DNA from: Bacteroidetes bacterium GWF2_35_48
GTDB lineage: Bacteria > Bacteroidota > Bacteroidia > Bacteroidales > GWF2-35-48
Length of the DNA stretch: 64,000 nucleotides
Direction of reading: 5' to 3'
Assembly (NCBI GenBank): GCA_001769125.1
Contig: MEOG01000069.1
Span: 62,001-126,000 of the forward strand
This document shows positions 20,097 through 35,381 of this stretch, in pieces (the first letter of the stretch is position 1; every line of letters begins with the position of its first letter). The notes under the pieces were generated by a model that saw only the letters and a program-made list of their open reading frames with translations, did not search any database and was not told the origin of the DNA. The translations under genes and the position numbers were made by a program.

Positions 20097-23000
20097 CTAC
20101 CTTCCAATAATAAACTTCTTAATAATATGCTTATTTTCTTCAACATTCAGTTTTACATGATAAAAACCCGGAGAATAATTTGCAACATTTAAAGTGTAAA
20201 CTTCGGAAAAAGCAGACATTGTCTTTTCTTCTATTAATTGTCCGAGAATATTATAAACCTGAATAGTATAGGGAGCGTCTGTTATTCTGTTAAAATACAA
20301 ATTCATATTTGTAGAAGCAGGATTTGGCGCAATAATAAAATCAATGTTGTTATTATAAGCTTCTATGGGTGCAATAAATGTCCCCTGTGAAGTATCGGTT
20401 GTTGAAACCTGGTATACTTCTTTTGTAAGATTATCCTGTACGTAAACAACCACAATTACATTACTGTCTATAGCAGAATAAAAATTTGCCAAACTGCTTG
20501 AATACTGCAATGTGCGTACATCTCCGGTACTCCAGTTTTCGGAAATATTTGTACCCGCTGCATCAGGGAGCATTTTTCTTACAGTGTTTAAAAATTTAGT
20601 TTCTCCGTTTGTCCCAACCCCTGTACGATCCATAAATTTCTCTACGACTACAACATGAACTGTCAGATCTTTATCTGTAATATTTTCTAAAGCTGTTATT
20701 TCAGTCAGCACATTGATTGAACTTCCCGTAAAGCCTAAATCAATATCAACAGTAAATTTAGGGTCTGTAAGCCTTCTGTGACGCAATTTTGTTAAAAAAA
20801 CATCATAAGGGTATAAGGTCAATGGAGAAATATACGATCTTAAATAATTACCATCCATTATTGTATATGGTACAACAGAAACACCATACATAAAAGATTG
20901 CGCCCCCGAACCTTGCGGATAGTCAAGATTCAATTGGTCTGCAACAGGGTATTCTGTGTGATATTGAATATCTACAATGTCTTTTTGATTTTGATTAACC
21001 CAGTCATTAAATTTTACATTTCCAGTTGCGCTTGAGACGTCATTTGCATTTGTAAAATGCTCAAACAGTACCATTCTTGGTCTTTCTCCAATCCATATAT
21101 CGTCAAAGGCAAAACCATTATATATATTGCTGTTATTAGAGGCAAATGCTATTCTTAAGCGAACACTTGGTTCCCCTGCAAGAATGTCGAGATCATGTCT
21201 TGCGTCTGTCCATTGATTATATATCGAATCAGACCATCCGAAATTTCCCCCACCGGGATAGCTGTAATTAACAACATTATCATACCAGCTGATTCCTTCC
21301 TGAATTTCATTGACATCTTTTAATGTATACCATGTTGAATCATTGTCAAGTGAATATTGGAGTGCTGCTCCATCATAATATTTTTCTGTAGCGCAAAAGA
21401 TTCTCATTTTTATCATAGGACGTTTTAGATCAGAAAAATTAAAGCAGGGACTGATAACATAAGATTGTTCTTCGTTTTGGTAGGCTGAATCAAGTTTGTA
21501 AGAAGTATACCATGCACTTGTCCCGGAATAGGGTGGAGGTAAATTACTACTCAACGCCTGACCATAACACCAACTGTCTTTATTATTTGAAGAACCGGAT
21601 GACCATGCGCCGGAACTGACGTCAAAATTTTCAAAATATGGATATTGTACTATTTCAGGTCTTATTAAAGCTGTTTGTGTTATTGAATCAATACACGAAT
21701 TCTTTGTGGTTATTACAAGTGTAATATCATACGCTCCCGTTTGTGAATATTCATGTGTGGGGTTTTGTAATGTACTGCTTTGATTATCGCCAAAAGTCCA
21801 ATAATAAGAATCAATTGTATCACCAAATGAATTATTAATAAAAGCAACAAATCCTCCAAAACATTCGTTTTTCCAGGTAAATTGAGCGGTAGGAATCGAA
21901 TCAAAATATACTACAGAATTTTTTGAATTCACACAGCCAAATTTTGAGGTCAGCGTTAATTCTATTGATTTATTACCGCCAGAAGTATATATATGTTGTG
22001 CTATACTGTCATTAGGAATAATAGTTTCATCTCCCATGTCCCATTGCCAGATTGAAACGGAATCAATAGTACTGATACCCTCAAATACAATCGGATTTGA
22101 AATACATTTATCCGAGGTTATTGTAAAATCAACATCAGGAAGTTTGTGAATAACAACCGTATCATTAACCGTTGTTATACACTGGCTGTTTGATGCGTTA
22201 AATACGAGTTGTACAGGAACATCTATATAACTTTGCGATGGCGTATTATTTAAAGTGTCAATAAAGGAAGAGGGTTGTAGATTATTTGTCTGAAAATTCA
22301 TTATTTTCCAAAAGGATGTTCCGGATAAATACGGGGACATGGAATAACTTAAAAGCGATGAAGGACTGTTAATACAAAGCGAATGTTCCGGGTTAATTCC
22401 TTCTATGGTAATATCCGGTAAGCCGTAAATTTTTATAGGAGAAAACGTATTTACTGTACATCCGTTTGTATCTGTATATACAAGAAAAATTGTATCATTA
22501 TATTGTCTTGTTGCACTGTCTAATAAATTTTCTATAGCTGGCGTTGATGGATTAATGATGCCTGCACCATCCCCGGTTGAAAATATTCCAACACCTGAAA
22601 ACAGACCTCCGTTATATGGTATCGCATTATATGAGTAAATTCCGATAAGCGTATCAATAGGCGAATTTGTGCAATACTTCTGCTCATTTCCCTGAATACT
22701 TAATGTAGGTATCTGATGAACAAAAAGAGTGTCTTCCCAATTATTAACACAACCGGTTATTGGATTATGATATTGATAAGTAATAATATTATCTCCGATA
22801 TTAATAGCAGAAGGATTAACAATTACGGTATCATTATTATAAGCAATAGTATTTATTTTTATATAATCAGTGATAACGTTGGGGTTGTTTCCATGCAGTT
22901 CAAAAGGGCTTGCATTTCTGCATATTTCATCAAGCGAGACAAAACTGTCTGTTGGCAGAGGATGAACAATAATAGGAAAGCTAACCATTTTTTTACAATT

Positions 23001-26000
23001 ACTGGGGGCTGTGTATTCATAAAAAACAGTGTCTTGACCTATACCAACTGTATTAATATTAAAAGTTGCATTAAATGTATTTTCAGTGTTAAAACCCAAA
23101 CCACTCCAAATTCCGGAGCCATTAGGCGGAAATTGATTAATGGCATTTGCCGTTATGCTTGCATTTGAATAACAATACGCAGTGTCCAATCCTATTAAAT
23201 CTGGTACTCCAACGGAGTCAACTTTTACGTTCATCAATATTTCCAATATTGCGGCATTGTAAATATATTTAAATGTTATAGTATGCGTTCCGGGACCTGC
23301 AAGTGTAGGATTAAATACGCCATGTTTATTCCCTAAATCCTGAACATAAGCAGTATTCACAAACCATCCGGTATCATTAACATTTGGTGATGGAATGCCC
23401 CAAATATGAATATTTGTATCCCCAAAACAATAAAAGACAGTATCTGTAATTCCTGTTATCTGTCCTAATACATTTATTACGTGAACCGTGTCTGTAAAAG
23501 AAATAATACATCCGGTAGGATGGGTATAAGTATATGTTATTGGCCAATTACCTACTCCTGCTATATTTGGACGAAATGTATTATTATACTGCATAACCCC
23601 TGCTCCGGAAAATATACCCCCGGCAGGATTACCAATAAGTTGAACGCTGGTTGTGTCATCTGAACTAAATGTGTAAGTTGTTAAAGGGGTTATTGATACT
23701 ACCGAATCAACTGGAGGAACTATGGTAAAAGTATTTGTAGTAAAACATCCTTTTGAATCTGTAACAGAAACAGAATATGCTCCAGAAGGCAAACTGTCTG
23801 CGCTTTGTGTTGTTTGATAGAAAGAATCATCCCATATATATTGATATGGACTCATTCCATTTATTTCTGTAATAGTTAAGATTGCGTCAGTATCATAACT
23901 GCATTTTAAAGCCTGTGCTAATGCTATTGTGATATTAAATTGCGGAGGATTAACTATAGAGCCACTGATAATTATTGTGCAGCCATTGTTATCAGTAACG
24001 GTACAAAAATATACTCCAAATGATAAGTTGAAACATGTCGCTGTTGTTTGTGAATCTGCATCGCTCCATAAATAATTATAAGTAGGCGTTCCCCCATTAA
24101 CAACTATTGATGCTGTTCCATCTGAAGAATCATGACAACTTATTTCTGTTGTTGTTATGTATGCTGTCAAAGCAGTAGGTTCGTTAATGGTATACGCTGC
24201 ATTCAAAGTAATTACACAACCTATATTATTTGCATCTCTTATGCGAACATCGTACGTGGATGCGGATAGTAAAGTGTAGCTCCCCGTGCCTTCCCAGCTT
24301 GTTCCTCCATTTATCGTATACTCATAAGCACCACTGCCACCACTTGGTGAACTGATGCTTATACTTCCATCGGATGTACCGTTACAGCTTGCATTGGTCT
24401 TGTTTAAAATGGCTGATAATTCTACAGGTTCTGATATAAAAAGCGCGCTGTTTAATTGAATGGAACAACTTGTTGCATTGGCATCACGAATATAAATATC
24501 GTAAGTTCCTGTTGTTAGTGTGTTGAACACGTCTGATGCCTGCCAGCCTGCGCCGCCGTTGATGCTGTACTCATAGTTTCCACTTCCGCCTGTGGGGATG
24601 GTTAAACTTATCGCTCCATTGTTGTTTCCATAGCATACGCTTACATCTGTGGTATTTATCGTTGCGTTTAGGATATTGGGCTGCGTAAGTTGCAACGCAT
24701 TGTTCAACGTTAGCGTGCAGCTTGTATTTACGGCATCTCTGAATACTACATTGTAATATCCGGCTGATAAATTGCTGAATGTTCCTGTTCCCTGCCAGCT
24801 TGTACCGCCGTTATTACTGTATTCATAACTACCACTGCCGCCTGTGGGAACGGTTATGTTTATCTCTCCTTCCGGTGTGTTGTAGCAAATAAGATTTGTA
24901 CTGCTCAATGTTGCATTCAGTGCTGTTGGCTGTGTCAGCGTCAGTGCGCCGTTTAAAGTTACCACGCATGTAGGCGCATTGGCATCACGCATTTTTACAT
25001 TATACGTACCTGCAACTAAGCCTGTAAATAAATTCCCACTTTGCCATATAGTGCCTCCATTTATTGTGTATTCATAAAAGCTGCTTCCTCCTGTCGAACC
25101 TGTGATTTCTATTGATGCGTTTGCATTACCGTTACAGGCTGTTACATTTATCGGATTTACTGCTGCAGTTAATAAGTCCGGCTGTGTAATGGTATACGCT
25201 GCATTCAAAGTAATTACACAACCTATATTATTTGCATCTCTTATGCGAACATCGTACGTGGATGCGGATAGTAAAGTGTAGCTCCCCGTGCCTTCCCAGC
25301 TTGTTCCTCCATTTATCGTATACTCATAAGCACCACTGCCACCACTTGGTGAACTGATGCTTATACTTCCATCGGATGTACCGTTACAGCTTGCATTGGT
25401 CTTGTTTAAAATGGCACTCAACAAGCTTGGTTCATCTAATGTTTTTGCTAAAGTAAAATCGCATCCATTAACATCTGTTATAGTAACAGTATAAATATCT
25501 GCAACAAGATTTGAAGCAACCGATGTATTTTGGCTAAGACCATCATCCCACAAATAAGAATACGGAGCTGTTCCCCAGCTCCCAGATGCAGTAAGAGTGC
25601 CATCAGATGCCCCGTTACAGGAAATGGAATTTGAAATAGAAATAAGCCCGTTAATTTTTCCTTGCCAATTCATTTCAAAACCAGTAAAATTATTTGATCC
25701 ATTAGAATGCCAAACAATATGCAGGGAAGATCCTGTAGAAGTAATAATTGCAGGAGGAGGAATCGTGTTACAATAAGTTCCGATAATGGGAGACAAAGCA
25801 TCCGGGCCGTCATAAATAATTAAATAATCGAGATTACATGCAACGTCTGCTTCAACATCAAAAGAAATAAATTCAAGAACTACTTTTTGGGCGTTAGCAG
25901 GGCTTATTGTTACAGAATAATCTTCATTATCTAAATAATTACCTGCATTGTCGTCTGAATCAGTTAATGTGCCGGTACAACCAGTCAGCGTACCACCATC

Positions 26001-26078
26001 AACTGTGCTGATTTTTGTCTGTGAAAATCCAGCGTTCAGAAATAAAAAAAATAATATGGAAAATAAATAACTTCTCAT
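20097..26078 (-). CDS. giant T9SS-secreted surface protein with CUB domain and SprB-type repeats
   Basis: 1993 residues. The signal peptide is residues 1-19 (SILFFLFLNAGFS-Q). A CUB domain follows (about 25-145; FNTF-like core with YLIIYDGPDALSP). Residues about 150-720 are a run of SprB-type repeats, each beginning with a CNG-x-SDG-x-I/T block. Ig-like/PKD domains cover about 740-1480 (YYWTFGDNQSSTLQNPTHEY), and an anchor/MAM-like domain and an Omp28-like thioredoxin-fold part follow. The C-terminus is a type A sorting domain (IAPNPASTNMNLYF ... IIKKFIIGR). The protein is thus expected to be exported and attached to the surface, as a gliding or adhesion protein. It is last in the TIR/STAND operon, 41 bases after the lipoprotein gene. 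It contains a 229-base perfect internal duplication. Confidence 0.92.
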   Translation of the reverse strand: MRSYLFSILFFLFLNAGFSQTKISTVDGGTLTGCTGTLTDSDDNAGNYLDNEDYSVTISPANAQKVVLEFISFDVEADVACNLDYLIIYDGPDALSPIIGTYCNTIPPPAIITSTGSSLHIVWHSNGSNNFTGFEMNWQGKINGLISISNSISCNGASDGTLTASGSWGTAPYSYLWDDGLSQNTSVASNLVADIYTVTITDVNGCDFTLAKTLDEPSLLSAILNKTNASCNGTSDGSISISSPSGGSGAYEYTINGGTSWEGTGSYTLLSASTYDVRIRDANNIGCVITLNAAYTITQPDLLTAAVNPINVTACNGNANASIEITGSTGGSSFYEYTINGGTIWQSGNLFTGLVAGTYNVKMRDANAPTCVVTLNGALTLTQPTALNATLSSTNLICYNTPEGEINITVPTGGSGSYEYSNNGGTSWQGTGTFSNLSAGYYNVVFRDAVNTSCTLTLNNALQLTQPNILNATINTTDVSVCYGNNNGAISLTIPTGGSGNYEYSINGGAGWQASDVFNTLTTGTYDIYIRDANATSCSIQLNSALFISEPVELSAILNKTNASCNGTSDGSISISSPSGGSGAYEYTINGGTSWEGTGSYTLLSASTYDVRIRDANNIGCVITLNAAYTINEPTALTAYITTTEISCHDSSDGTASIVVNGGTPTYNYLWSDADSQTTATCFNLSFGVYFCTVTDNNGCTIIISGSIVNPPQFNITIALAQALKCSYDTDAILTITEINGMSPYQYIWDDSFYQTTQSADSLPSGAYSVSVTDSKGCFTTNTFTIVPPVDSVVSITPLTTYTFSSDDTTSVQLIGNPAGGIFSGAGVMQYNNTFRPNIAGVGNWPITYTYTHPTGCIISFTDTVHVINVLGQITGITDTVFYCFGDTNIHIWGIPSPNVNDTGWFVNTAYVQDLGNKHGVFNPTLAGPGTHTITFKYIYNAAILEILMNVKVDSVGVPDLIGLDTAYCYSNASITANAINQFPPNGSGIWSGLGFNTENTFNATFNINTVGIGQDTVFYEYTAPSNCKKMVSFPIIVHPLPTDSFVSLDEICRNASPFELHGNNPNVITDYIKINTIAYNNDTVIVNPSAINIGDNIITYQYHNPITGCVNNWEDTLFVHQIPTLSIQGNEQKYCTNSPIDTLIGIYSYNAIPYNGGLFSGVGIFSTGDGAGIINPSTPAIENLLDSATRQYNDTIFLVYTDTNGCTVNTFSPIKIYGLPDITIEGINPEHSLCINSPSSLLSYSMSPYLSGTSFWKIMNFQTNNLQPSSFIDTLNNTPSQSYIDVPVQLVFNASNSQCITTVNDTVVIHKLPDVDFTITSDKCISNPIVFEGISTIDSVSIWQWDMGDETIIPNDSIAQHIYTSGGNKSIELTLTSKFGCVNSKNSVVYFDSIPTAQFTWKNECFGGFVAFINNSFGDTIDSYYWTFGDNQSSTLQNPTHEYSQTGAYDITLVITTKNSCIDSITQTALIRPEIVQYPYFENFDVSSGAWSSGSSNNKDSWCYGQALSSNLPPPYSGTSAWYTSYKLDSAYQNEEQSYVISPCFNFSDLKRPMIKMRIFCATEKYYDGAALQYSLDNDSTWYTLKDVNEIQEGISWYDNVVNYSYPGGGNFGWSDSIYNQWTDARHDLDILAGEPSVRLRIAFASNNSNIYNGFAFDDIWIGERPRMVLFEHFTNANDVSSATGNVKFNDWVNQNQKDIVDIQYHTEYPVADQLNLDYPQGSGAQSFMYGVSVVPYTIMDGNYLRSYISPLTLYPYDVFLTKLRHRRLTDPKFTVDIDLGFTGSSINVLTEITALENITDKDLTVHVVVVEKFMDRTGVGTNGETKFLNTVRKMLPDAAGTNISENWSTGDVRTLQYSSSLANFYSAIDSNVIVVVYVQDNLTKEVYQVSTTDTSQGTFIAPIEAYNNNIDFIIAPNPASTNMNLYFNRITDAPYTIQVYNILGQLIEEKTMSAFSEVYTLNVANYSPGFYHVKLNVEENKHIIKKFIIGR
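24185..24413. repeat. 229-base perfect direct repeat, copy 1
   Basis: Identical base for base to 25187-25415, inside the SprB-repeat region of the giant adhesin gene. The offset is 1002 bases (334 codons), so the frame is kept. Other SprB repeats of the gene are clearly diverged. Confidence 0.95.
25187..25415. repeat. 229-base perfect direct repeat, copy 2
   Basis: Second copy of 24185-24413. Both encode the same segment, beginning near LNKTNASCNGTSDGSISISS and ending in LNAAYTI. Confidence 0.95.
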
Positions 26079-26119: not shown

Positions 26120-27352
26120 TTATTTTTGTCCTCCGTTTTTATTCGTTTTTATCAAAGTCATCATTTTATATGCATTTTGACCGGCAATTATGCAGCCATC
26201 ATCATTAGTCTGAAATACACAATAAGCCATTTCATCAAGTTGTTTTTCCCCAAAATAGCTGGTAAAAATAGTTGAACCGTCTGAATTTAATTTTAAAAGA
26301 AAAATATCTTTATTTGTGTTTTTACCAGTTGTTCCTGTTACAAAATATGTATTATCTTTAGTGGGAAAAACAGCTTTGCTTTCAGTGAACGAAGCTTTTT
26401 CTGTTTTTATTTCCCATTCTGTATTACGAATACTACTGGGTTTAAGTTTCACAATATAAGCTTCAGATGTTCCGGCTTCAGCACCCAATGTACCGCAGAA
26501 AATATATCCTCCATCACCTGTTTGCTGAATTGTTTCTCCGAAATCGTTTTCTGAACCTCCGTAAGTTTTCATATCATTCTGAAATCCTAAATTATTCGTT
26601 TCAACTATAATAATATTTGATTTTTCTTTTCCTGTTTCAGTAAATGATTCTGTTGTCCCGATTATAACATACCCTCCATCTGACTTAGCTAAAATAAAAT
26701 TACCAATATCATCTTCTGGGCCTCCGCGTGAATTTTTCCATATTACATTTCCTTCAGAATTAATTTTCAGAATTAAAATATCCTTTTTCCCTTGTACGTT
26801 AAGATTTGCTGTATTTGCAGAGGTCGTTAAGCCTGTTATAATATAACAATTATCCGTTGTTGCTTTAATGCAATTACCCTCTTCATTATTCGTTGTTCCG
26901 ATTATTTTTGGGGATGACCAGATCAATATGCCGGAAGCATCTGTTTTAATAACATAAACATCTGTATGAACGAATGCTCCGTTTTTTGATGTGCTATATC
27001 CTGTGATAACAATAGTACCATCTGTATTAATAACAAAACTTTTGCCTTCATCATTCAAACTATCGCCATAAAGCCGACTCCATTCTTCATTTCCAAATTT
27101 ATCGGTTTTAATAAGAGTTACATCTAATCCTTTCCCGGGAACAGAAACAGATCCGAGCAACAAATAACCTCCGTCTGATGTTTGTTTAACATCATAAGCA
27201 TTGTTTATACCGGAAGAGCCAAAAAATTTAGTAAAAAAAACAGATTGAGAATCTCCGGGTTGGCTTTTTTTACACGAAAAAAAGAACAGAATAACAAGAG
27301 TTATAATGCCCAAATGAGAATACAATAATATTTTTTCGCGAGTCAATTTCAT
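26120..27352 (-). CDS. secreted lipoprotein with seven DGGY beta-propeller-like repeats
   Basis: 410 residues. The N-terminal signal peptide ends in the lipobox FFSC (Cys27). The mature protein has seven repeats with the pattern T-x-DGG-Y-x-I-x-G: DVKQTSDGGYLLLGS, FVINTDGTIVITG, IKATTDNCYIITG, ILAKSDGGYVIIG, IQQTGDGGYIFCG, VFPTKDNTYFVTG and VFQTNDDGCIIAG. Seven repeats fit a closed seven-bladed propeller. It is probably anchored in the outer membrane. Its start overlaps the upstream barrel gene by 4 bases (ATGA), and the giant adhesin follows after 41 bases. Its partner is unknown; a binding or scaffold role between barrel and adhesin is inference. Confidence 0.8.
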   Translation of the reverse strand: MKLTREKILLYSHLGIITLVILFFFSCKKSQPGDSQSVFFTKFFGSSGINNAYDVKQTSDGGYLLLGSVSVPGKGLDVTLIKTDKFGNEEWSRLYGDSLNDEGKSFVINTDGTIVITGYSTSKNGAFVHTDVYVIKTDASGILIWSSPKIIGTTNNEEGNCIKATTDNCYIITGLTTSANTANLNVQGKKDILILKINSEGNVIWKNSRGGPEDDIGNFILAKSDGGYVIIGTTESFTETGKEKSNIIIVETNNLGFQNDMKTYGGSENDFGETIQQTGDGGYIFCGTLGAEAGTSEAYIVKLKPSSIRNTEWEIKTEKASFTESKAVFPTKDNTYFVTGTTGKNTNKDIFLLKLNSDGSTIFTSYFGEKQLDEMAYCVFQTNDDGCIIAGQNAYKMMTLIKTNKNGGQK

Positions 27353-28392
27353 TTAACTTTCATGGGGTTGTAATTAACAAACGTATAACCGACAGAAATG
27401 GAAAAAATATTCATTCTGAAGTCGTCATCAATATAATAATATTTATAAACCAATTCATTGTTTGAATATCTGTTTTTTATTCGAACCTGATTAAATAATC
27501 CCAAATTATATCTAAAATCAATAAATAAATATCCCTTTTTGATTTTATATTTTAGCCCTGCTCCTGTTACAAGCCATAGGTTGAAGGGATTTCGACCATC
27601 AGTCATATTTATCTCAGACCCCTTTACATCAACGGCAGAATTATCTGTGAAATTTCTAATCAATCTGGCATTTGACATAAAAAGGAAAGCAGGATTTAAT
27701 CCGCCCCGTAAATAAGGTTTTATTTTTTTATATGGATATTCATACGTAACACTAACAGGAGCACTTAATCTTATATTTGTTTCGGAACACTCAACCTTAA
27801 CAAAATTGAAAAAATATCGCTCATTGTATAATTTATTTTGTTCTATCTGCATATCAAAATTCAAGTCAAAATTTCTGTATATAAAGCGACTATATTTCAC
27901 TCCAAACTGAAACCCTGTTCCATATAAATTTTTAATAACTGCATTATTAAGGTTATGAACTCCAAAATGTTCTATTGTTTTTGCGATTGAAAAATTTGTA
28001 CCGATATAAACACCATAAGCAGAAACCGGCGCTGCAAAATAAGTATCAAAAATTGATAAAAACTCAGGTTCTTCAACAGATCTGACCACTTCATACTCGG
28101 GTTCTGTTTCAAGAATTTTTATGATATATTTTTCCGCATTTTTTTTATTATCCTGATATAAAGAAACAAGCGTTAAAAGCCGGTATGCCTGAAGTTTTTC
28201 TTTTTTATCATATCCTCTTTCAATGCAGGGTTCAATCAATTTAAATACAGAATCAATTGCTCCCTCTTCAAAATATTGACCTGCTTTTTTTAAAAGTACA
28301 GAACAATCTTCCTGAGCTTTTGTCTGCTGAGTAAAAAGTGTTATCAGAAAAATAAAACTTATAACAAATATTTTAGGTATTTTTATTTTCAT
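27349..28392 (-). CDS. TPR-like plus outer-membrane beta-barrel protein
   Basis: 347 residues. The signal peptide is about residues 1-26 (IFVISFIFLITLFTQQTKA-Q). Residues about 28-95 are helical and TPR-like (CSVLLKKAGQYFEEGAIDSV, RLLTLVSLYQDNKKNAEKYI). The rest is alternating aromatic strands with a barrel-like end (FRMNIFSISVGYTFVNY), so it is probably an outer-membrane barrel of the PorT/OmpW-like size. It is 26 bases after the STAND gene and overlaps the lipoprotein gene by 4 bases. The periplasmic helical part could contact the periplasmic part of the STAND protein; that is inference. Confidence 0.75.
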   Translation of the reverse strand: MKIKIPKIFVISFIFLITLFTQQTKAQEDCSVLLKKAGQYFEEGAIDSVFKLIEPCIERGYDKKEKLQAYRLLTLVSLYQDNKKNAEKYIIKILETEPEYEVVRSVEEPEFLSIFDTYFAAPVSAYGVYIGTNFSIAKTIEHFGVHNLNNAVIKNLYGTGFQFGVKYSRFIYRNFDLNFDMQIEQNKLYNERYFFNFVKVECSETNIRLSAPVSVTYEYPYKKIKPYLRGGLNPAFLFMSNARLIRNFTDNSAVDVKGSEINMTDGRNPFNLWLVTGAGLKYKIKKGYLFIDFRYNLGLFNQVRIKNRYSNNELVYKYYYIDDDFRMNIFSISVGYTFVNYNPMKVK

Positions 28393-28418: not shown

Positions 28419-31400
28419 TTAATTTTTTTTCTTTGAATCTGAAATAGATAATAATTTACCGTCCTTAACCACAACACAAAAAGTTTCATTGAATCCATAA
28501 TTATGAATTCTGCGTTGCGAACCCAGTGCTTCTTCACGTGTTTTCCAGTTACCAATTAAAAACCTGTAATGATCGCCATCCTGAATAACTTCAACATTTT
28601 CAAGTCCATTAAAATTTTTGGGTTCCGGAGCAATATATTTTTTAGAAGAAGCAAATTGTATTTTGTAAATTTTATCTGAATTTTTAAAATTATTTGATAA
28701 TCGCTGCTGCGCTAGTAAATTTTCAGGAGTAACCCCCTTTCCAAGCGGCTTATCGGAAATCGTTCTTTCGTAAGCAATATCTTTTCCAACATAAGCTCTC
28801 CACTCTTCAATAGACATATTTCTTGCAATAGCATCCGCTACCTGTTCTGCAATTAAATTGGTGTTAACTGGCCAGCGAGCTATTTTGTTATTCCTATGAC
28901 CACTTATTATTGAATTATTATCTGTACTGAAAGCAATAGACCAAATCCATGATTTTTCATCATCTTTTATTACGAAAGGCTGATAATTAAAATTATCAGT
29001 AAGCCATATTCGTATAGTTCCATCAAAGCCTGATGATGCAAAATATGCATTGTCTGGACTAAATTTTATATCATTAACTTTTGTGGCATGTCCGCCAAGA
29101 TTTATTATTAATGTTCTAAAGCTGATATTCCAAATTTGAATTGATCCTTTATTGTCAACAGAGGCAAGCATGGAGCCATCAGGGCTTACCGAAACAGCGT
29201 TAAATGAAGCATCTGAATGAGAAGAAAAAATTACAGAGTCTTTAGAAATACGATTCCATAAAATTAACTTACCATCATTAGTACCCCCAATTATTCTTTT
29301 GCCATCAGGAGTAAACGCAAGGCTTTTCACAAGGGCATTTCTTTTTATAAAAACCTGCATGGAAGAAGACTCAATATCCCAAAATAATATAGAATTATCA
29401 GCGCTTGAAGAAGCAAGGGTATTGCAGTCAGGTGAAAAAGCAAGAGAACTGATTGTTCCGGTGTGACCTTTAAAAATTTTCGCCGGATTGCCGATGTTGC
29501 CAAAAAGATCAAAAACCTGAATAAGACTATCTGTTCCACAAGCCAACCACCTGCCATTAATACTTATAGCGAGACAGGTATTAAATCCTTTATTTTTATA
29601 TAATGTTAAATATTTCAATGAGTCATTTCCATCCCATTGCAAAATTTTTCCATCATTTCCGGCACTATAAAAAATATTATTTATTGGATTAAAAACTATA
29701 GAACGAACAGAGGCAGTATGACCATTATGATAATTGAATCCTTTTCCCTTGAATGCTTTTAACGCATTTAGTAATCCACTAAAAATATCTGTATTAAATT
29801 TCTGTCCTTTGTACTTATTGTTAAATAAAAATGCCTGATAAGCAACAAGGGCTTTTTCATTTTTATCGCGTTCTATTTGCAGGGACTTAACAGCCATAGA
29901 CTGGGCTATTGAAAGAAATCGCAATTCCTGCGCCCTGCTTTCAGCTCGCCTTGCAGCAACAGAGTTCGATTCGGCTTTTAATTTTTCTGTAAGAGCCACA
30001 TTAGCACTTGAGTCGGCAAGCAATTTTTGAATGAGTGCCTCATTAGCTGATTCTTCCGCTTTCGCACGTTGCAGTTCTGCATTTATTTTTTCCTGTTTTG
30101 CTAAACTTTCCTGAATATTTGCTTCAATAGATTTTTGAGAGGCCATTAATTTATCTGCAAGGGCTTTCTCTGTTTGATAGTTAGCAAACTTTGTTTGCCT
30201 TTCAGCTTCTTTTTTTTGTTCTATCGCGAGCAAACGTTGTTTGTCGGCTTCGCTTTTCATAATTTGAGAATAGAGCATAAAGCCTAATGAAAGAACTGCT
30301 GCCGCGCCAAGAACCAGTGCTGTAACCCGGGAGCGCCTCAATGCTCTTCGTTGCAATCTTTTTTTATTTAACTCTTCAGCTTCATAATCTTTCTGACTTG
30401 CATCCATATATGCAATTGTTCTCTCATAGCCGGGTGCGTATCTTTGAGCCCATTCAAGTGTAGGTTGCTGTTTCATTTTCCAATTAATCGCAAGCTGGAG
30501 ATCAGGTGGCCTCCAAAGACCCGTTTTCCCTGCCTGATACAAAGCAGCAGACTCAGAAAGTCTTAAATAAATCTGCACAGAAGCAGATTCATCCTCTACC
30601 CATATTTTTAGCTTGTCCCAAATTCTCATAAGGCTCTCATGAGACAAATCTATGATTGTATCGCTTGTAAGTTTAACTTTAGAAGCAGGGGAGAGAAAAG
30701 ATCTTCCCGTAACCCTGAATTTGTCAACTACTTCAATAATTTCCTGCTCTGTTGAAAGAGAAATCAAAGCCAGATCTTTAATACAGGTTGGACGTCTTAT
30801 TCCCCTGTTGTCGCTTCCTTTTTCTGATAGTGTTTTAAAAATTTTCGCACAAATTTCTTTACCCCTTGGTGTTAATTCATTGTATGCCTCATTCGCATGT
30901 TCAGACAAGGCTTTTTCAATTCCACCGATAGCATGATAATGACTAATACTTATAGGTTCATTCTGTAACCGATGTTTTATCCAGTAATCCCATGTTCTCA
31001 TCAGCGCATGCTGGAGGATGGGTAACTGGTCAGGGTTATCTCCGATATCATTCAGTAACTGATTTACCAAGTGCGAAGAGATGGTTCCTCCTGCAACAGC
31101 AATAGGACCGGTAATCGCTTCTGTTAAATCTTCACGGGTCATTTGTGGAATCAGATAATGGCTTTTATTAATCAAAGATGACAATTCCTGATAGTGCGCG
31201 CACTCTCCAATAAAATCGGAGCGCATGGTGATTGCAATATAAATAGGAATGTCTTCCTGATTGATTGCTTCAACTAAAAGTTTTAAGTAAAAATAGGTTT
31301 CATTTATAGTATCTGAGATAAGGCTTTCTTTTCTGAACCGGAACAATTCTTCAAACTGGTCAATATAAATTAAAATATTTTTATTGATTTTATAAAGTTG

Positions 31401-31838
31401 TTTGATAGCATCAACAAGCCCTAATGAACTGCTTCGGAGAATACTTTCGGTTAAAGCTAAATTAAAATAATCGTCTTCATCCGGCGTGTCGCTTTCCGCA
31501 TCTTTTGATAATGATTCTGCCATATTTTGTATGGGCTTGCTTCCCGGTCTGGAGATGATAACATGCCATGAAGACCCATATTTTGTAACAAAACCCCCAT
31601 GCAATATTGGCATCAAACCACAAAAAACCAGTGAAGATTTTCCACCTCCGGAAGCACCAAGAATTGCGATAAATTTATTATTGGCAAGATTGTATAAAAC
31701 TTCATCGCTTTGCCCGTCTCTTCCAAAAAACAAATGACTTTCTTCAATTCCAAAAGGGCGCAAGCCCGGATAAGGATTGAATAATTGTCCAAAAGGAATT
31801 TCGTTATTAAAATCAATATGATTTATATTATTTGTCAT
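28419..31838 (-). CDS. transmembrane STAND NTPase with WD40 repeats and a SPOR-like domain
   Basis: 1139 residues. It opens with the nSTAND1 motif PYPGLRPFGIEESHLFFGRD (about 22-41), a Walker A GASGGGKSS (61-69), Walker B ILIYIDQFEELF (155-166) and the sensor block ITMRSDFIGEC. A winged-helix/arm region runs to about 480. One membrane segment (ALVLGAAAVLSLGFMLYSQI, about 507-526) is followed by a long charged coiled coil (about 530-660), WD40-type repeats (about 705-990) and a C-terminal SPOR-like domain (about 1057-1126; KIQFASSK ... YRFLIGNWKTREEAL). The likely layout is an ATPase in the cytoplasm and WD40-SPOR in the periplasm, with SPOR on peptidoglycan. It overlaps the TIR gene by 4 bases. 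Confidence 0.88.
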   Translation of the reverse strand: MTNNINHIDFNNEIPFGQLFNPYPGLRPFGIEESHLFFGRDGQSDEVLYNLANNKFIAILGASGGGKSSLVFCGLMPILHGGFVTKYGSSWHVIISRPGSKPIQNMAESLSKDAESDTPDEDDYFNLALTESILRSSSLGLVDAIKQLYKINKNILIYIDQFEELFRFRKESLISDTINETYFYLKLLVEAINQEDIPIYIAITMRSDFIGECAHYQELSSLINKSHYLIPQMTREDLTEAITGPIAVAGGTISSHLVNQLLNDIGDNPDQLPILQHALMRTWDYWIKHRLQNEPISISHYHAIGGIEKALSEHANEAYNELTPRGKEICAKIFKTLSEKGSDNRGIRRPTCIKDLALISLSTEQEIIEVVDKFRVTGRSFLSPASKVKLTSDTIIDLSHESLMRIWDKLKIWVEDESASVQIYLRLSESAALYQAGKTGLWRPPDLQLAINWKMKQQPTLEWAQRYAPGYERTIAYMDASQKDYEAEELNKKRLQRRALRRSRVTALVLGAAAVLSLGFMLYSQIMKSEADKQRLLAIEQKKEAERQTKFANYQTEKALADKLMASQKSIEANIQESLAKQEKINAELQRAKAEESANEALIQKLLADSSANVALTEKLKAESNSVAARRAESRAQELRFLSIAQSMAVKSLQIERDKNEKALVAYQAFLFNNKYKGQKFNTDIFSGLLNALKAFKGKGFNYHNGHTASVRSIVFNPINNIFYSAGNDGKILQWDGNDSLKYLTLYKNKGFNTCLAISINGRWLACGTDSLIQVFDLFGNIGNPAKIFKGHTGTISSLAFSPDCNTLASSSADNSILFWDIESSSMQVFIKRNALVKSLAFTPDGKRIIGGTNDGKLILWNRISKDSVIFSSHSDASFNAVSVSPDGSMLASVDNKGSIQIWNISFRTLIINLGGHATKVNDIKFSPDNAYFASSGFDGTIRIWLTDNFNYQPFVIKDDEKSWIWSIAFSTDNNSIISGHRNNKIARWPVNTNLIAEQVADAIARNMSIEEWRAYVGKDIAYERTISDKPLGKGVTPENLLAQQRLSNNFKNSDKIYKIQFASSKKYIAPEPKNFNGLENVEVIQDGDHYRFLIGNWKTREEALGSQRRIHNYGFNETFCVVVKDGKLLSISDSKKKN

Positions 31839-33265
31839 GCAAATGCGATAGAAATTTTTTCAATAAAAACGGATAATAATTCAATCGAGAATTCATTTGT
31901 ACCATGAATAGGAATAATTCCTCTGTTGTAAAAATATTCATCCGGAACAGAATGAGGAGAATCAAGGTACACAGCTTTAGTAATAAAAGGCTTAGCCCTA
32001 CCAAAACCAGGAGCTTTCACAATATCATTAATTTTACTTTTCAACCAGAATTCATCACTGCTGTCAAAATATATAAGTACTGCATCACAGTCAACTAGAT
32101 TCTGTCTGTGTTTTTTTAATAAATTTTTTTCTTCTGTGAGCTTTGGAGAATGAATTATTTCAAACCCCTGTGTAGAAAGAAAAATACTGATATCGCTAAT
32201 TTTATCAAAAGAAGGGCTTTCGTGAACCAGATAGATTCGAGTTCCTCTCTTCTGTAAACTTTCTGAAGCAGGCCCATGATGCACTGATTTAATTTCAGAC
32301 ATTATGATTGTTTTGAAATATTCAAGCGGGGTTTGTATTAAAGATGCTCCTCTCAGCGCTTCTGAATCTCTCTTTAACTGTTCAATAAAATGACGCTGCG
32401 TTTCATTCTGTATTTTAAGATCCGGCGACATCCATATTAAGCGGGAAAAAAGAAATGGATTGTCTTTCCTTCTTACTTTATAATTCTCATAATAATCTGC
32501 AGCAATTTTATTTTGAAAGTCAGGAGCAGAAATCTCACTGTTTTTTAATAATTCTCCATAAGTATTACCAAAAATATGAATAGACAAAAAAGATTGATCA
32601 AGATATTTAATAACAGAATCTTTAAGTTCATCTGTAGTATCAGGTAAAATATTTTCGGGACATACCCTGAATCCCATTCGCTTTAATTCTCTTTTGATGC
32701 TTTCCCTGCTATTTTCCTGATCAGGTGTAGTTTCTGCCAGATAAATAAAATAAGGAGACTTGACATGTTCTTCTTCAGAAGATAAGGCAAAGCGAAGATC
32801 AAAAACAAGATCCGTTAATTTTGTCCAGTAATGCCTTTCCATATCAACAATATTCTTTTCCATCAAAGAATGTTGATCTTCCGTTGTGGGTAATTTGAAA
32901 AAAAAATCATAACTAATATGAGATCTTAGCGTTTCGGGTTGTTTTGAAAGAGGTATTTCCTTTTTTAATATTTTAAAAAATTTTTTATTTGTTTGAACGA
33001 CTTCGTTTGTAATAATATCCAGCTCTTTCATGGATGCATTAGATTTTAAATAATTATCATTCAAAAAAACAATAAATGCATCTGATTTATTTATTACACG
33101 AAGTAGTTCATCTTCTGAATTTATATCACCGCTTAAATGAAAGCGGATTTCATTTCCATAAATTTTATTAATAAGTGTCAGGATGAAAGAAAGAAGATTT
33201 TTTTCCCAACTATTCAAAGATTGCTCTTTGAAATGACTTATGAATATGGACGCCGAAAGATTCAT
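31835..33265 (-). CDS. protein with three TIR-like domains
   Basis: 476 residues, no signal peptide or membrane segment, so probably cytoplasmic. Residues 1-125 are a clear TIR-like domain (ASIFISHFKEQ; SDAFIVFLNDNYL; SMKELDII with a glutamate at the expected catalytic place). Residues about 170-310 look like a second one (SPYFIYLAETTPDQENSRESIKREL; SIHIFGNTYGE). Residues about 343-476 look like a third (GTRIYLVHESPSFDKISDISIFL; CDAVLIYFDSSDEFW). TIR domains signal by self-assembly or by cleaving NAD. It is first of the operon and overlaps the STAND gene by 4 bases (ATGA). The TIR-like calls for domains 2 and 3 rest on strand and turn patterns and are weaker. Confidence 0.75.
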   Translation of the reverse strand: MNLSASIFISHFKEQSLNSWEKNLLSFILTLINKIYGNEIRFHLSGDINSEDELLRVINKSDAFIVFLNDNYLKSNASMKELDIITNEVVQTNKKFFKILKKEIPLSKQPETLRSHISYDFFFKLPTTEDQHSLMEKNIVDMERHYWTKLTDLVFDLRFALSSEEEHVKSPYFIYLAETTPDQENSRESIKRELKRMGFRVCPENILPDTTDELKDSVIKYLDQSFLSIHIFGNTYGELLKNSEISAPDFQNKIAADYYENYKVRRKDNPFLFSRLIWMSPDLKIQNETQRHFIEQLKRDSEALRGASLIQTPLEYFKTIIMSEIKSVHHGPASESLQKRGTRIYLVHESPSFDKISDISIFLSTQGFEIIHSPKLTEEKNLLKKHRQNLVDCDAVLIYFDSSDEFWLKSKINDIVKAPGFGRAKPFITKAVYLDSPHSVPDEYFYNRGIIPIHGTNEFSIELLSVFIEKISIAFA

Positions 33266-33386: not shown

Positions 33387-35381
33387 TTAAAAACGAATTC
33401 CGATAACAAGAATATCATCGGTCTGCTCGTGTCCGTTTTTCCAGTTTTCAATCGTGTTATCCAAAAGTATTTTTTGTTCACTCATAGGAAGGTGGGCATT
33501 TTCAATAAGCATTTTTTTGAAATTGCAAGACAAGAATTTCCATTTTTCAGATCCGCCGAATTGATCAGAATATCCGTCTGAAAACAAATACAGCAAATCT
33601 CCTTCATTAATTTGGAACTCATGATTCTTAAAAGGATTCATTCCCCTCCTGCTGATACCAATTGGCATTTTATCTGCCTTTATTTCATGTAGCATCGGGC
33701 CATGGGGCGATGGTATCATGCCCACGGGCGATGCTACATGATATAATGGATTATTTGCTCCTGCATATTGAATTATTTTTTTATCCGTATCAATAATACA
33801 AAGAGCAACATCCATTCCATCTTTGCTGCCTCCAATTTCATCCGTCTGACGTAGAGCTGTTACAATATTCTCGCGGAGTTTGAATAAAATTTCATTTGCA
33901 GAAATATTTTTATATTTATTAACTATTTCATTCAGAAAAGCAAATCCAAGCATACTCATAAACGCACCGGGAACCCCATGTCCCGTACAATCAACAGCGG
34001 CAATGTACACCTTATCGTCTAACTGCACAACCCAATAGAAATCGCCACTGACAATTTCTTTAGGTTTATATAGAATAAAAATTTCTTTCAGATATTTATT
34101 GACATTCTCTTCCAGAGGTAGAATGGCATCCTGAATTCGTTTTGCATAAATAATGCTGTCTGTAATTCTCTTTTTCTGCTCTTCTATCTGATCTTTTTGC
34201 TTAACAACTTCTGCAGTACGTTCTCGGACTTTTTCTTCCAAAACATTATAATATCCTTCAATTGTCGCAAGCATTTCATTGAATTTCTCAGACAAAGTAG
34301 TTATTTCATTTTTCCCTTCCACTTCAGCCCTTTCCTCAAAATTTCCGGCAGTAATACGCAAAACATTATTGACAAGTTTTTTAATTGGTTTTGTTATTGT
34401 GCGTGTTTTGTTATAAATCATTAAAATTACAACAAAAAGTGTGATGCCAAAAATGAGCAATGTTTTTATGAGTTCAATTTGTAAAATTCTAATGTCTTCT
34501 GTTTTATCTGTTACAATAGAAATAACGGAACTTTTATACAACAGTGTATTTTTTCGTTCCATGTAAATGAATTCATAATGAAGATGTCTTTCCTTTTCGA
34601 TAACATCCAAAGCTGTCCTTTTTTTCAGTTCAAAAGCGTCAAACAAATATTTTTTCCTAAGATCATTCTTTTTTAGGGGATATCCACTAATAAATGAAAA
34701 AGGTTCGTCTGCGCCAATAAATAAATCAACATACGAAATACTTGAGTCTTTTTTTGTGATGTGGGAAAATCTATCTTTTACGAGCTTTTGCACTCTGTCT
34801 GCTCTTATGGAATAATGACCGGTTTCAATGATATAACGTCCGTCAGGAGTAGGTTGATATGTATATTTTTTTATACGCTTTGTAGACATCTCAATAGAAA
34901 ATCGCTCACTCACAAATTTTTTTGATGAAAGCATGTCCAACAAAAAGTTTTTAAATCCTTCGCCAAAATCAAAAACACATTTATTCAAATCCTTATCAAA
35001 CGTTGTGTTAACAATAACGCCTGTTTTAGAGTCAATAACATAAATATCCTCCATTTCAGGATGCATCCCCAAGTTTAATTGCACATCCCTTAAATCAATT
35101 GTTTCAATTTTATTTTGCTCTTTTTTGTATATCTCAATCAAGCTATTGCTTATTTCTTCTACTCTTTTGTCAAGAAACTCCTCAATTATATTTAATGAAG
35201 CATCCTGAAAATTCATTATGTTTTGTATTTCATCTGATATAATTTGATTTTTCTTCTCACTTGCTTCCTGTAAAATAGAACGCGTATTTTGATAATTTAA
35301 AACTCCCAGAATAAGCAATGCTGTAACAACCGGAATGATTACATTCAAGATAAGTTGCTTAAAAATGGTGGTTTTCTTCAT
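33387..35381 (-). CDS. membrane sensor with HAMP, coiled coil and SpoIIE-type PP2C phosphatase
   Basis: 664 residues, a SiaA/RsbU-like serine/threonine phosphatase acting on a partner protein. Two membrane segments (about 9-28 and 300-322) bound a periplasmic sensor region. A HAMP domain follows (about 325-375), then a coiled coil, then the phosphatase from about 410 with metal-binding blocks SGDFYW, AAVDCTGHGVPGAFMSMLG, FSDGYSDQFGG and a final TDDILVIGIRF. It is 120 bases upstream of the TIR gene on the same strand and could be read with that operon or alone. Its architecture matches SiaA, and a SiaC-like protein is at 15706-16086. An in-frame insert (about 17 residues) is described at 33685-33741. 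Confidence 0.9.
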   Translation of the reverse strand: MKKTTIFKQLILNVIIPVVTALLILGVLNYQNTRSILQEASEKKNQIISDEIQNIMNFQDASLNIIEEFLDKRVEEISNSLIEIYKKEQNKIETIDLRDVQLNLGMHPEMEDIYVIDSKTGVIVNTTFDKDLNKCVFDFGEGFKNFLLDMLSSKKFVSERFSIEMSTKRIKKYTYQPTPDGRYIIETGHYSIRADRVQKLVKDRFSHITKKDSSISYVDLFIGADEPFSFISGYPLKKNDLRKKYLFDAFELKKRTALDVIEKERHLHYEFIYMERKNTLLYKSSVISIVTDKTEDIRILQIELIKTLLIFGITLFVVILMIYNKTRTITKPIKKLVNNVLRITAGNFEERAEVEGKNEITTLSEKFNEMLATIEGYYNVLEEKVRERTAEVVKQKDQIEEQKKRITDSIIYAKRIQDAILPLEENVNKYLKEIFILYKPKEIVSGDFYWVVQLDDKVYIAAVDCTGHGVPGAFMSMLGFAFLNEIVNKYKNISANEILFKLRENIVTALRQTDEIGGSKDGMDVALCIIDTDKKIIQYAGANNPLYHVASPVGMIPSPHGPMLHEIKADKMPIGISRRGMNPFKNHEFQINEGDLLYLFSDGYSDQFGGSEKWKFLSCNFKKMLIENAHLPMSEQKILLDNTIENWKNGHEQTDDILVIGIRF
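33685..33741. repeat. palindromic insert inside the phosphatase reading frame
   Basis: TCATGTAGCATCG (33685-33697) and CGATGCTACATGA (33729-33741) are perfect 13-base arms around 31 bases. It encodes the segment HVASPVGMIPSPHGPMLHE, placed between NNPLY and IKADKMPIGI. Other SpoIIE phosphatases usually have only a few residues at that point, so this is probably an inserted repeat that kept the frame. Confidence 0.6.

What the first reader, a model, noticed from the sequence alone, without database searches (positions are those of the whole stretch)
28419..31838. SPOR-like C-terminal domain on a STAND ATPase
SPOR domains bind glycan strands lacking peptides at sites of wall remodelling. Joined to a STAND NTPase through a membrane segment, coiled coil and WD40 repeats, it would be an unusual signalling protein that could read cell-wall state.
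Basis: partly seen in the sequence, partly recalled or inferred. Interest (0 to 1): 0.6.

Follow-up and report, generated by a model that had tools for sequence, protein, structure and literature searches.

The report
Membrane STAND protein with wall-binding tail
A bacterial relative of the cell-death switch Apaf-1 is built into the inner membrane with its sensor in the space between the two membranes, is encoded next to a dedicated outer-membrane partner, and in this genus has gained an extra wall-binding tail.

Summary
The 1139-aa protein is nSTAND1 (22-437), one membrane segment (505-526), coiled coil, seven-bladed WD40 (703-990) and a divergent SPOR domain (1056-1130). SPOR is below Pfam's cut-off alone (18.0 v 21 bits) but matches nine above-cut-off SPOR domains of the same genome at 97% HHalign probability, folds b-a-b-b-a-b and keeps the glycan-contacting Gln (Q1061). 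The SPOR tail is an add-on: both genomes of this genus have it, and no other homologue found in 393 order, 395 class and 395 phylum genomes does. What is conserved is larger. nSTAND1-TM-WD40 genes sit directly before an outer-membrane barrel gene in 83 of 91 loci. The barrel is small or TonB-dependent, but both kinds carry one N-terminal helical domain, found in 22 of 22 STAND-positive and 0 of 20 STAND-negative genomes. Upstream lie a TIR-like/DUF4062 protein and a SpoIIE phosphatase, or RsbW-like and STAS genes. Best reading: an Apaf-1-like receptor spanning the envelope, with output by partner switching; SPOR anchors it to denuded glycan. Localisation and function are untested.

The parts
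28419..31838 (-). nSTAND1 - TM - coiled coil - WD40 - SPOR protein, 1139 aa
30528..31775 (-). nSTAND1 NTPase, residues 22-437 (Walker A GASGGGKSS at 61; Walker B region at 156)
   Evidence: Pfam E 6.5e-92; positions
30261..30326 (-). membrane segment, residues 505-526, preceded by KRLQRRALRRSR
   Evidence: 64 of 64 homologues hydrophobic, 63 of 64 positive-inside
29877..30245 (-). long helix / coiled coil, residues 532-654 (periplasmic by inference; pLDDT about 45-65 over much of it)
   Evidence: AF2 model
28869..29732 (-). seven-bladed WD40 propeller, residues 703-990
   Evidence: Pfam; AF2; Foldseek best single-domain match is the bacterial PkwA propeller 5yzv
28449..28673 (-). SPOR domain, residues 1056-1130 (Q1061 = conserved glycan-contacting Gln)
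31835..33265 (-). upstream gene overlapping by 4 nt: three TIR-like units, the middle one DUF4062
   Evidence: Pfam; AF2 and Foldseek
33387..35381 (-). membrane HAMP - SpoIIE phosphatase
   Evidence: Pfam; upstream on the same strand in 26 of 53 type-1 loci
27349..28392 (-). outer-membrane beta-barrel with N-terminal helical (TPR-like) domain; the dedicated partner
   Evidence: Pfam OMP_b-brl
28024..28311 (-). N-terminal helical domain of that barrel, shared with TonB-dependent receptors next to type-2 STAND genes
26120..27352 (-). repeat (propeller-like) lipoprotein-type protein, conserved next gene
   Evidence: 51 of 56 type-1 loci
20097..26078 (-). SprB-repeat/PKD/CUB surface protein with type IX sorting tail, often the next gene
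   Evidence: Pfam; 18 of 46 type-1 loci

Best explanation
An envelope-spanning STAND receptor. The nSTAND1 switch is in the cytoplasm; one membrane helix and a coiled coil carry a WD40 propeller into the periplasm, where it meets the N-terminal helical domain of an outer-membrane barrel encoded by the next gene. A change at the barrel (ligand, surface-protein or outer-membrane state) is felt by the propeller and shifts the STAND from its ADP-closed to its ATP-open, oligomerising form. The output goes through the upstream TIR-like/DUF4062 adaptor to a SpoIIE-type phosphatase (partner switching). In this genus a SPOR domain was added behind the propeller and ties the receptor to peptide-free glycan at division or remodelling sites. 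Shown by computation: domains, SPOR identity, predicted topology, genetic coupling to the barrel, shared N-domain, gene neighbourhood. Inferred: physical contact, nucleotide switching, partner-switching output, glycan binding, the signal itself.
For: Domains. N-in/C-out topology in 63 of 64. Barrel-family gene directly downstream in 83 of 91 loci, median gap 11 nt. In the TonB-type loci the ~870-aa partner shares only the N-terminal domain: that HMM hits 29 proteins of >=500 aa, in each within residues 20-167, while the barrel HMM hits 0. N-domain in 22 of 22 STAND-positive and 0 of 20 STAND-negative genomes; 25 of 26 copies adjoin a STAND homologue. The TonB-partnered STANDs form one clade, support 1.0, so the barrel was exchanged while the N-domain stayed. 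Partner-switching neighbours: SpoIIE in 26 of 53 type-1 loci; HATPase_c_2 in 10 and STAS in 11 of 29 type-2 loci. Foldseek ranks full-length Apaf-1 first. SPOR evidence; the conserved Gln is described in PMC6895207 (passages read).
Against: No direct evidence of contact between propeller and barrel N-domain; gene adjacency could mean co-regulation only. SpoIIE was not found in 27 of 53 type-1 loci nor the TIR-like gene in 18 of 55, so the output step is not universal. HATPase/STAS proximity was not compared with a random-gene background. AF2 pTM is 0.49, so domain arrangement is not reliable, and the SPOR region rests on two sequences. The tail's net charge is small (12 K/R, 10 D/E in 1055-1130), and a basic patch was not tested. 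One N-domain protein (G270:C12) has no STAND nearby.
Confidence: 0.55

Rival explanations
1. SPOR is the sensor itself: binding of denuded glycan opens the STAND switch, so the protein reports wall remodelling.
For: The SPOR domain is real and constrained and in the position where STAND sensors usually sit, the C-terminus.
Against: All other homologues lack it and still have the operon. The WD40 already fills the sensor position, as in Apaf-1 (recalled; also stated in PMC7159879).
Confidence: 0.18
2. An anti-phage or abortive-infection system: TIR-like/DUF4062 effector with a STAND sensor, like Swarozyc or Avs.
For: DUF4062 is a TIR-like NADase in Swarozyc (PMC13174449, abstract and passages read); the DUF4062 match is above cut-off; Foldseek finds SARM1, SPARTA and RPP1 TIRs.
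Against: The candidate catalytic Glu column (res 249) is E in only 21 of 36 and D in the window; res 251 is Q in 32 of 36. PADLOC gives only repeat-type or weak matches. Similar operon order across many families of the order is unlike a mobile defence gene, and the partner is an outer-membrane barrel.
Confidence: 0.1
3. A structural or assembly complex for a surface or type IX secretion/gliding apparatus: STAND supplies ATP-driven assembly, SPOR and barrel are anchors.
For: Downstream propeller-like protein (51 of 56) and SprB-repeat protein (18 of 46 type-1 loci); window SprB protein has a type IX sorting tail.
Against: Type-2 loci pair with TonB-dependent receptors and none of these genes; regulatory neighbours fit signalling better.
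Confidence: 0.15
4. The tail is a chance resemblance or decaying read-through, not SPOR.
For: Pfam score is below the curated cut-off.
Confidence: 0.03

Closest known systems
Apaf-1 (apoptosome; PDB 3shf/3sfz)
   Same: STAND switch followed by WD40 propeller; top full-length Foldseek matches
   Different: Here a membrane helix and coiled coil sit between switch and propeller, which puts the propeller in the periplasm; one propeller; no CARD among the Pfam matches shown (best 25 of 45); SPOR tail
nSTAND1 conflict systems (Pfam PF20703; named in PMC8195603, passages read)
   Same: Same NTPase clade, E 6.5e-92
   Different: Those are described as immunity systems; this family is operon-conserved and tied to outer-membrane barrels. 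PMC10907252 (passages read) predicts some periplasmic STAND-associated sensor domains in one bacterium, so extracytoplasmic STAND sensors have a precedent
Swarozyc DUF4062 NADase and TEP1/NWD1 (PMC13174449, preprint, abstract and passages read)
   Same: DUF4062 together with an NTPase and WD40
   Different: Here DUF4062 is in a separate three-unit TIR-like protein and its putative catalytic Glu is not conserved
SPOR domains of RlpA, FtsN, DamX (PMC6895207, passages read)
   Same: b-a-b-b-a-b order and conserved Gln in strand 1
   Different: Divergent Bacteroidota subtype with a very short first helix; glycan binding untested
FecA/FecR-type signalling (recalled, no call)
   Same: A periplasmic N-terminal domain on a TonB-dependent barrel talks to an inner-membrane protein
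   Different: Inner-membrane partner is an nSTAND1-WD40 ATPase, not an anti-sigma factor; N-domain is helical
PG1058/PorE (PMC5053529; search listing and abstract start only, domain details recalled)
   Same: Periplasmic propeller plus wall-binding domain in Bacteroidota
   Different: No STAND ATPase, no membrane helix, OmpA-type instead of SPOR

Membership tests
SPOR (PF05036) | Score over Pfam's curated cut-off (21 bits) | tested here: not met
   18.0 bits, E 0.0036. This is a detection threshold; other domains of this genome that align with the same pattern also fall below it
SPOR (PF05036) | Homology to accepted SPOR domains | tested here: met
   HHalign 96.8% and 97.9%, controls at most 2.0%; HMM 34.7 bits v best shuffle 13.5
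SPOR (PF05036) | b-a-b-b-a-b RNP-type fold | tested here: met
   AF2 element order at 1057-1125, pLDDT about 55-77; no separate Foldseek run of this domain
SPOR (PF05036) | Conserved Gln in strand 1 that contacts glycan | tested here: met
   Q1061 in window, Q in congener; role from PMC6895207
SPOR (PF05036) | Binds peptide-free peptidoglycan | not testable with these tools
   needs protein
STAND NTPase (nSTAND1) | nSTAND1 profile and P-loop | tested here: met
   E 6.5e-92; Walker A at 61
STAND NTPase (nSTAND1) | Inducer-driven oligomerisation | not testable with these tools
   -
Apaf-1-like switch | NTPase followed by WD40 sensor | tested here: met
Apaf-1-like switch | Sensor in the same compartment as the NTPase | tested here: not met
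   membrane segment between them in 64 of 64; predicted only. It works like, but is not filed as, an Apaf-1
Swarozyc / DUF4062 NADase | Conserved catalytic Glu (upstream gene) | tested here: not met
   E in 21 of 36 at res 249, D in window; mapping of this column to E97 of KpSwz is my alignment-level guess
SpoIIE partner switching | PP2C phosphatase with RsbW-like kinase and STAS partner | tested here: inconclusive
   SpoIIE in type 1, HATPase_c_2 and STAS in type 2; the full set is rarely at one locus

The most novel reading that the evidence does not exclude
A class of trans-envelope, Apaf-1-like receptors of Bacteroidota: a cytoplasmic STAND switch with a periplasmic propeller that docks a dedicated N-domain carried by interchangeable outer-membrane barrels (porin-like or TonB-dependent), with signalling through a TIR-like adaptor to partner switching; this genus adds a SPOR anchor that ties the receptor to sites of wall remodelling.
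Probability: 0.5. Interest if true: 0.85.

Novelty: new variant of a known kind. Interest (0 to 1): 0.62.

Why it matters
STAND proteins are mostly studied as soluble sensors of invaders or metabolites. A family that carries signals from the outer membrane to a cytoplasmic STAND switch would give Bacteroidota a third route beside anti-sigma/TonB and two-component signalling, and would make the apoptosome architecture testable in an envelope-signalling role. The domain swap (one N-domain, two barrel types) gives a direct experimental handle. The SPOR variant would show a STAND receptor tethered to the cell wall.

Tried and rejected
Rejected: plus-strand reading. Antiphage system as first choice. 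SPOR as the family's sensor. Wall-binding SPOR as a separate gene in other loci: none among 1621 ORFs. NCBIfam gave nothing useful. phmmer of the tail against the PDB gave no SPOR entry (best E 0.048, an unrelated designed protein). Foldseek of the full model is swamped by WD40 matches, so SPOR could not be checked there. Of ten paper searches none listed, as far as titles and abstract starts show, a STAND/nSTAND1-WD40 protein with SPOR, with a TonB receptor or with an outer-membrane partner (two with zero papers: 40, 76); only open-licence PMC papers are held, so this is weak evidence of absence. Genome contigs found one relative, the congener.

Limits of counts: A1 holds 64 of 72 full-length homologues (8 left out); A3 36 of 40 TIR-like proteins; A4 every third barrel N-domain (29 rows). 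94 loci were analysed: 74 from the order search, 19 from the class search and the window; partial hits such as G017, G187, G337:C87 and G318:C10 were not fetched, the phylum hits were not examined for neighbours, and L119, L121 and L122 (other STAND architectures) were left out of the counts. In one search, 7 of the 22 positive genomes supplied rows of A4; 15 did not. Searches use HMMs or alignments built from these loci, so the positives are partly circular; the 20 negatives are not. The nine above-cut-off SPOR domains come from eight proteins; two are from one protein.

Full report
What is there. The frame 28419-31838 is a 1139-aa gene on the minus strand. Pfam places nSTAND1 at 22-437 (E 6.5e-92) and WD40 repeats after residue 700. 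AF2 on 64 homologues gives mean pLDDT 84, a long helix over 471-528 and another over 532-654, a propeller at 703-990 and a small b-a-b-b-a-b domain at 1057-1125. pTM is 0.49, so I do not use the arrangement of domains. Foldseek puts full-length Apaf-1 first and the bacterial PkwA propeller third.

Is the tail SPOR? Pfam alone gives 18.0 bits, under the cut-off of 21. The genome holds nine SPOR domains over that cut-off on their own and several under it. An HMM from the nine scores the window tail 34.7 and the congener's tail 27.7 bits; the best of 2000 shuffles reaches 13.5. HHalign of the two tails gives 96.8% against the nine and 97.9% against ten domains of the Bacteroidota pattern (four of them also among the nine); 20 column shuffles give at most 2.0% and an unrelated alignment 0.2%. 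The Gln that contacts glycan and is highly conserved among SPOR structures (PMC6895207, passages) is Q1061 here. The tail evolves under constraint, pN 0.28 v pS 0.77, much like the propeller at 0.24 v 0.83. I accept it as a divergent SPOR domain.

Topology. All 64 aligned homologues have a strongly hydrophobic 19-mer between the NTPase and the propeller, and 63 have more K/R before it than after it; 7 of 64 have a second 19-mer of mean hydropathy >=1.6 elsewhere, the window protein none. With a P-loop ATPase needing the cytoplasm, this puts coiled coil, WD40 and SPOR in the periplasm. Predicted, not measured.

How general. The protein without SPOR occurs in 75 of 393 order genomes (E<=1e-60), 19 of 395 class genomes and 11 of 395 phylum genomes (both E<=1e-100); these counts include the window's own genome and the samples overlap. 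Elsewhere it ends just after a conserved EWxxYVGxDIxYExT stretch at about residue 1030. So SPOR was most likely gained in this genus.

Neighbourhood. In 94 loci, the gene directly downstream on the same strand belongs to one barrel family in 83 of the 91 that have a downstream ORF of at least 120 aa; median gap 11 nt, and 77 of 83 gaps are 50 nt or less. There are two kinds. Type 1 (58 loci) has a ~350-aa outer-membrane barrel, then a ~400-aa repeat protein (51 of 56) and often a SprB-repeat protein (18 of 46); upstream are a TIR-like protein (37 of 55) and a HAMP-SpoIIE phosphatase (26 of 53). Type 2 (29 loci) has a ~870-aa TonB-dependent receptor (Pfam on one of them). Seven loci have neither. 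The two barrel kinds share only an N-terminal helical domain of about 90 residues: its HMM, built from type 1, hits 29 large proteins, while the barrel part hits none. On a tree of 91 STAND proteins the type-2 members form one clade with support 1.0 (29 type-2 and one without a called partner), and the window lies among type 1.

Specificity of the partner domain. In a chosen set of 42 genomes, the N-domain was found in 22 of 22 that have the STAND gene and 0 of 20 that lack it. Of 26 copies, 24 adjoin a STAND gene already found (places), one adjoins a more distant STAND homologue, and one (G270:C12) has none nearby. Seven of the 22 positives contributed to the alignment. This is strong co-occurrence and is the main reason for the receptor model.

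Output side. The overlapping upstream protein (31835-33265) is predicted as three alpha/beta units (mean pLDDT 86.7), with TIR structures among its best Foldseek matches, though the top E-values are only about 1e-3 and other alpha/beta proteins are listed too; the middle unit matches DUF4062 above cut-off. DUF4062 proteins can be NADases in an antiphage system (PMC13174449). Here the likely catalytic column is E in 21 of 36 and D in the window, so I favour an adaptor. SpoIIE next to type 1, and HATPase_c_2 (10 of 29) and STAS (11 of 29) next to type 2, suggest partner switching as the common output; I did not measure the background rate.

Verdict. The better find is the family itself, an Apaf-1-like switch split across the inner membrane and coupled to the outer membrane, of which this is the SPOR-tethered variant.

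Noticed in passing
L066:326-3490 and the same position in many type-1 loci (-2 or -3): A ~1050-aa protein with HEAT repeats and a weak C-terminal cyclic-nucleotide-binding match lies upstream in many relatives but not next to the window operon.
   Followed up: partly
L097 (own genome, C79:14168-17329): This genome also has a type-2 copy without SPOR, paired with a 925-aa TonB-type receptor.
   Followed up: partly
L124 (own genome C97), L123 (C60): Proteins with several SPOR-like domains, three in a 973-aa and two in a 688-aa frame; many such domains fall under the Pfam cut-off.
   Followed up: no
L121 (G001:C164): A different nSTAND1 protein (frame of 1245 aa, running off the contig) also has a TIR-like gene of this family beside it.
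   Followed up: no
L155:4314-6752: An 812-aa protein carrying the STAND-partner N-domain with no STAND gene nearby.
   Followed up: partly
window 20097-26078: Large CUB/SprB/PKD surface protein with a type IX sorting tail and an Omp28-like stretch near the C-terminus.
   Followed up: no
L096, L100, L149 upstream of STAND: STAS, RsbW-like ATPase and STAND-TonB genes follow a glycogen-debranching-like gene on the same strand (that name is from a look at the sequence only).
   Followed up: no
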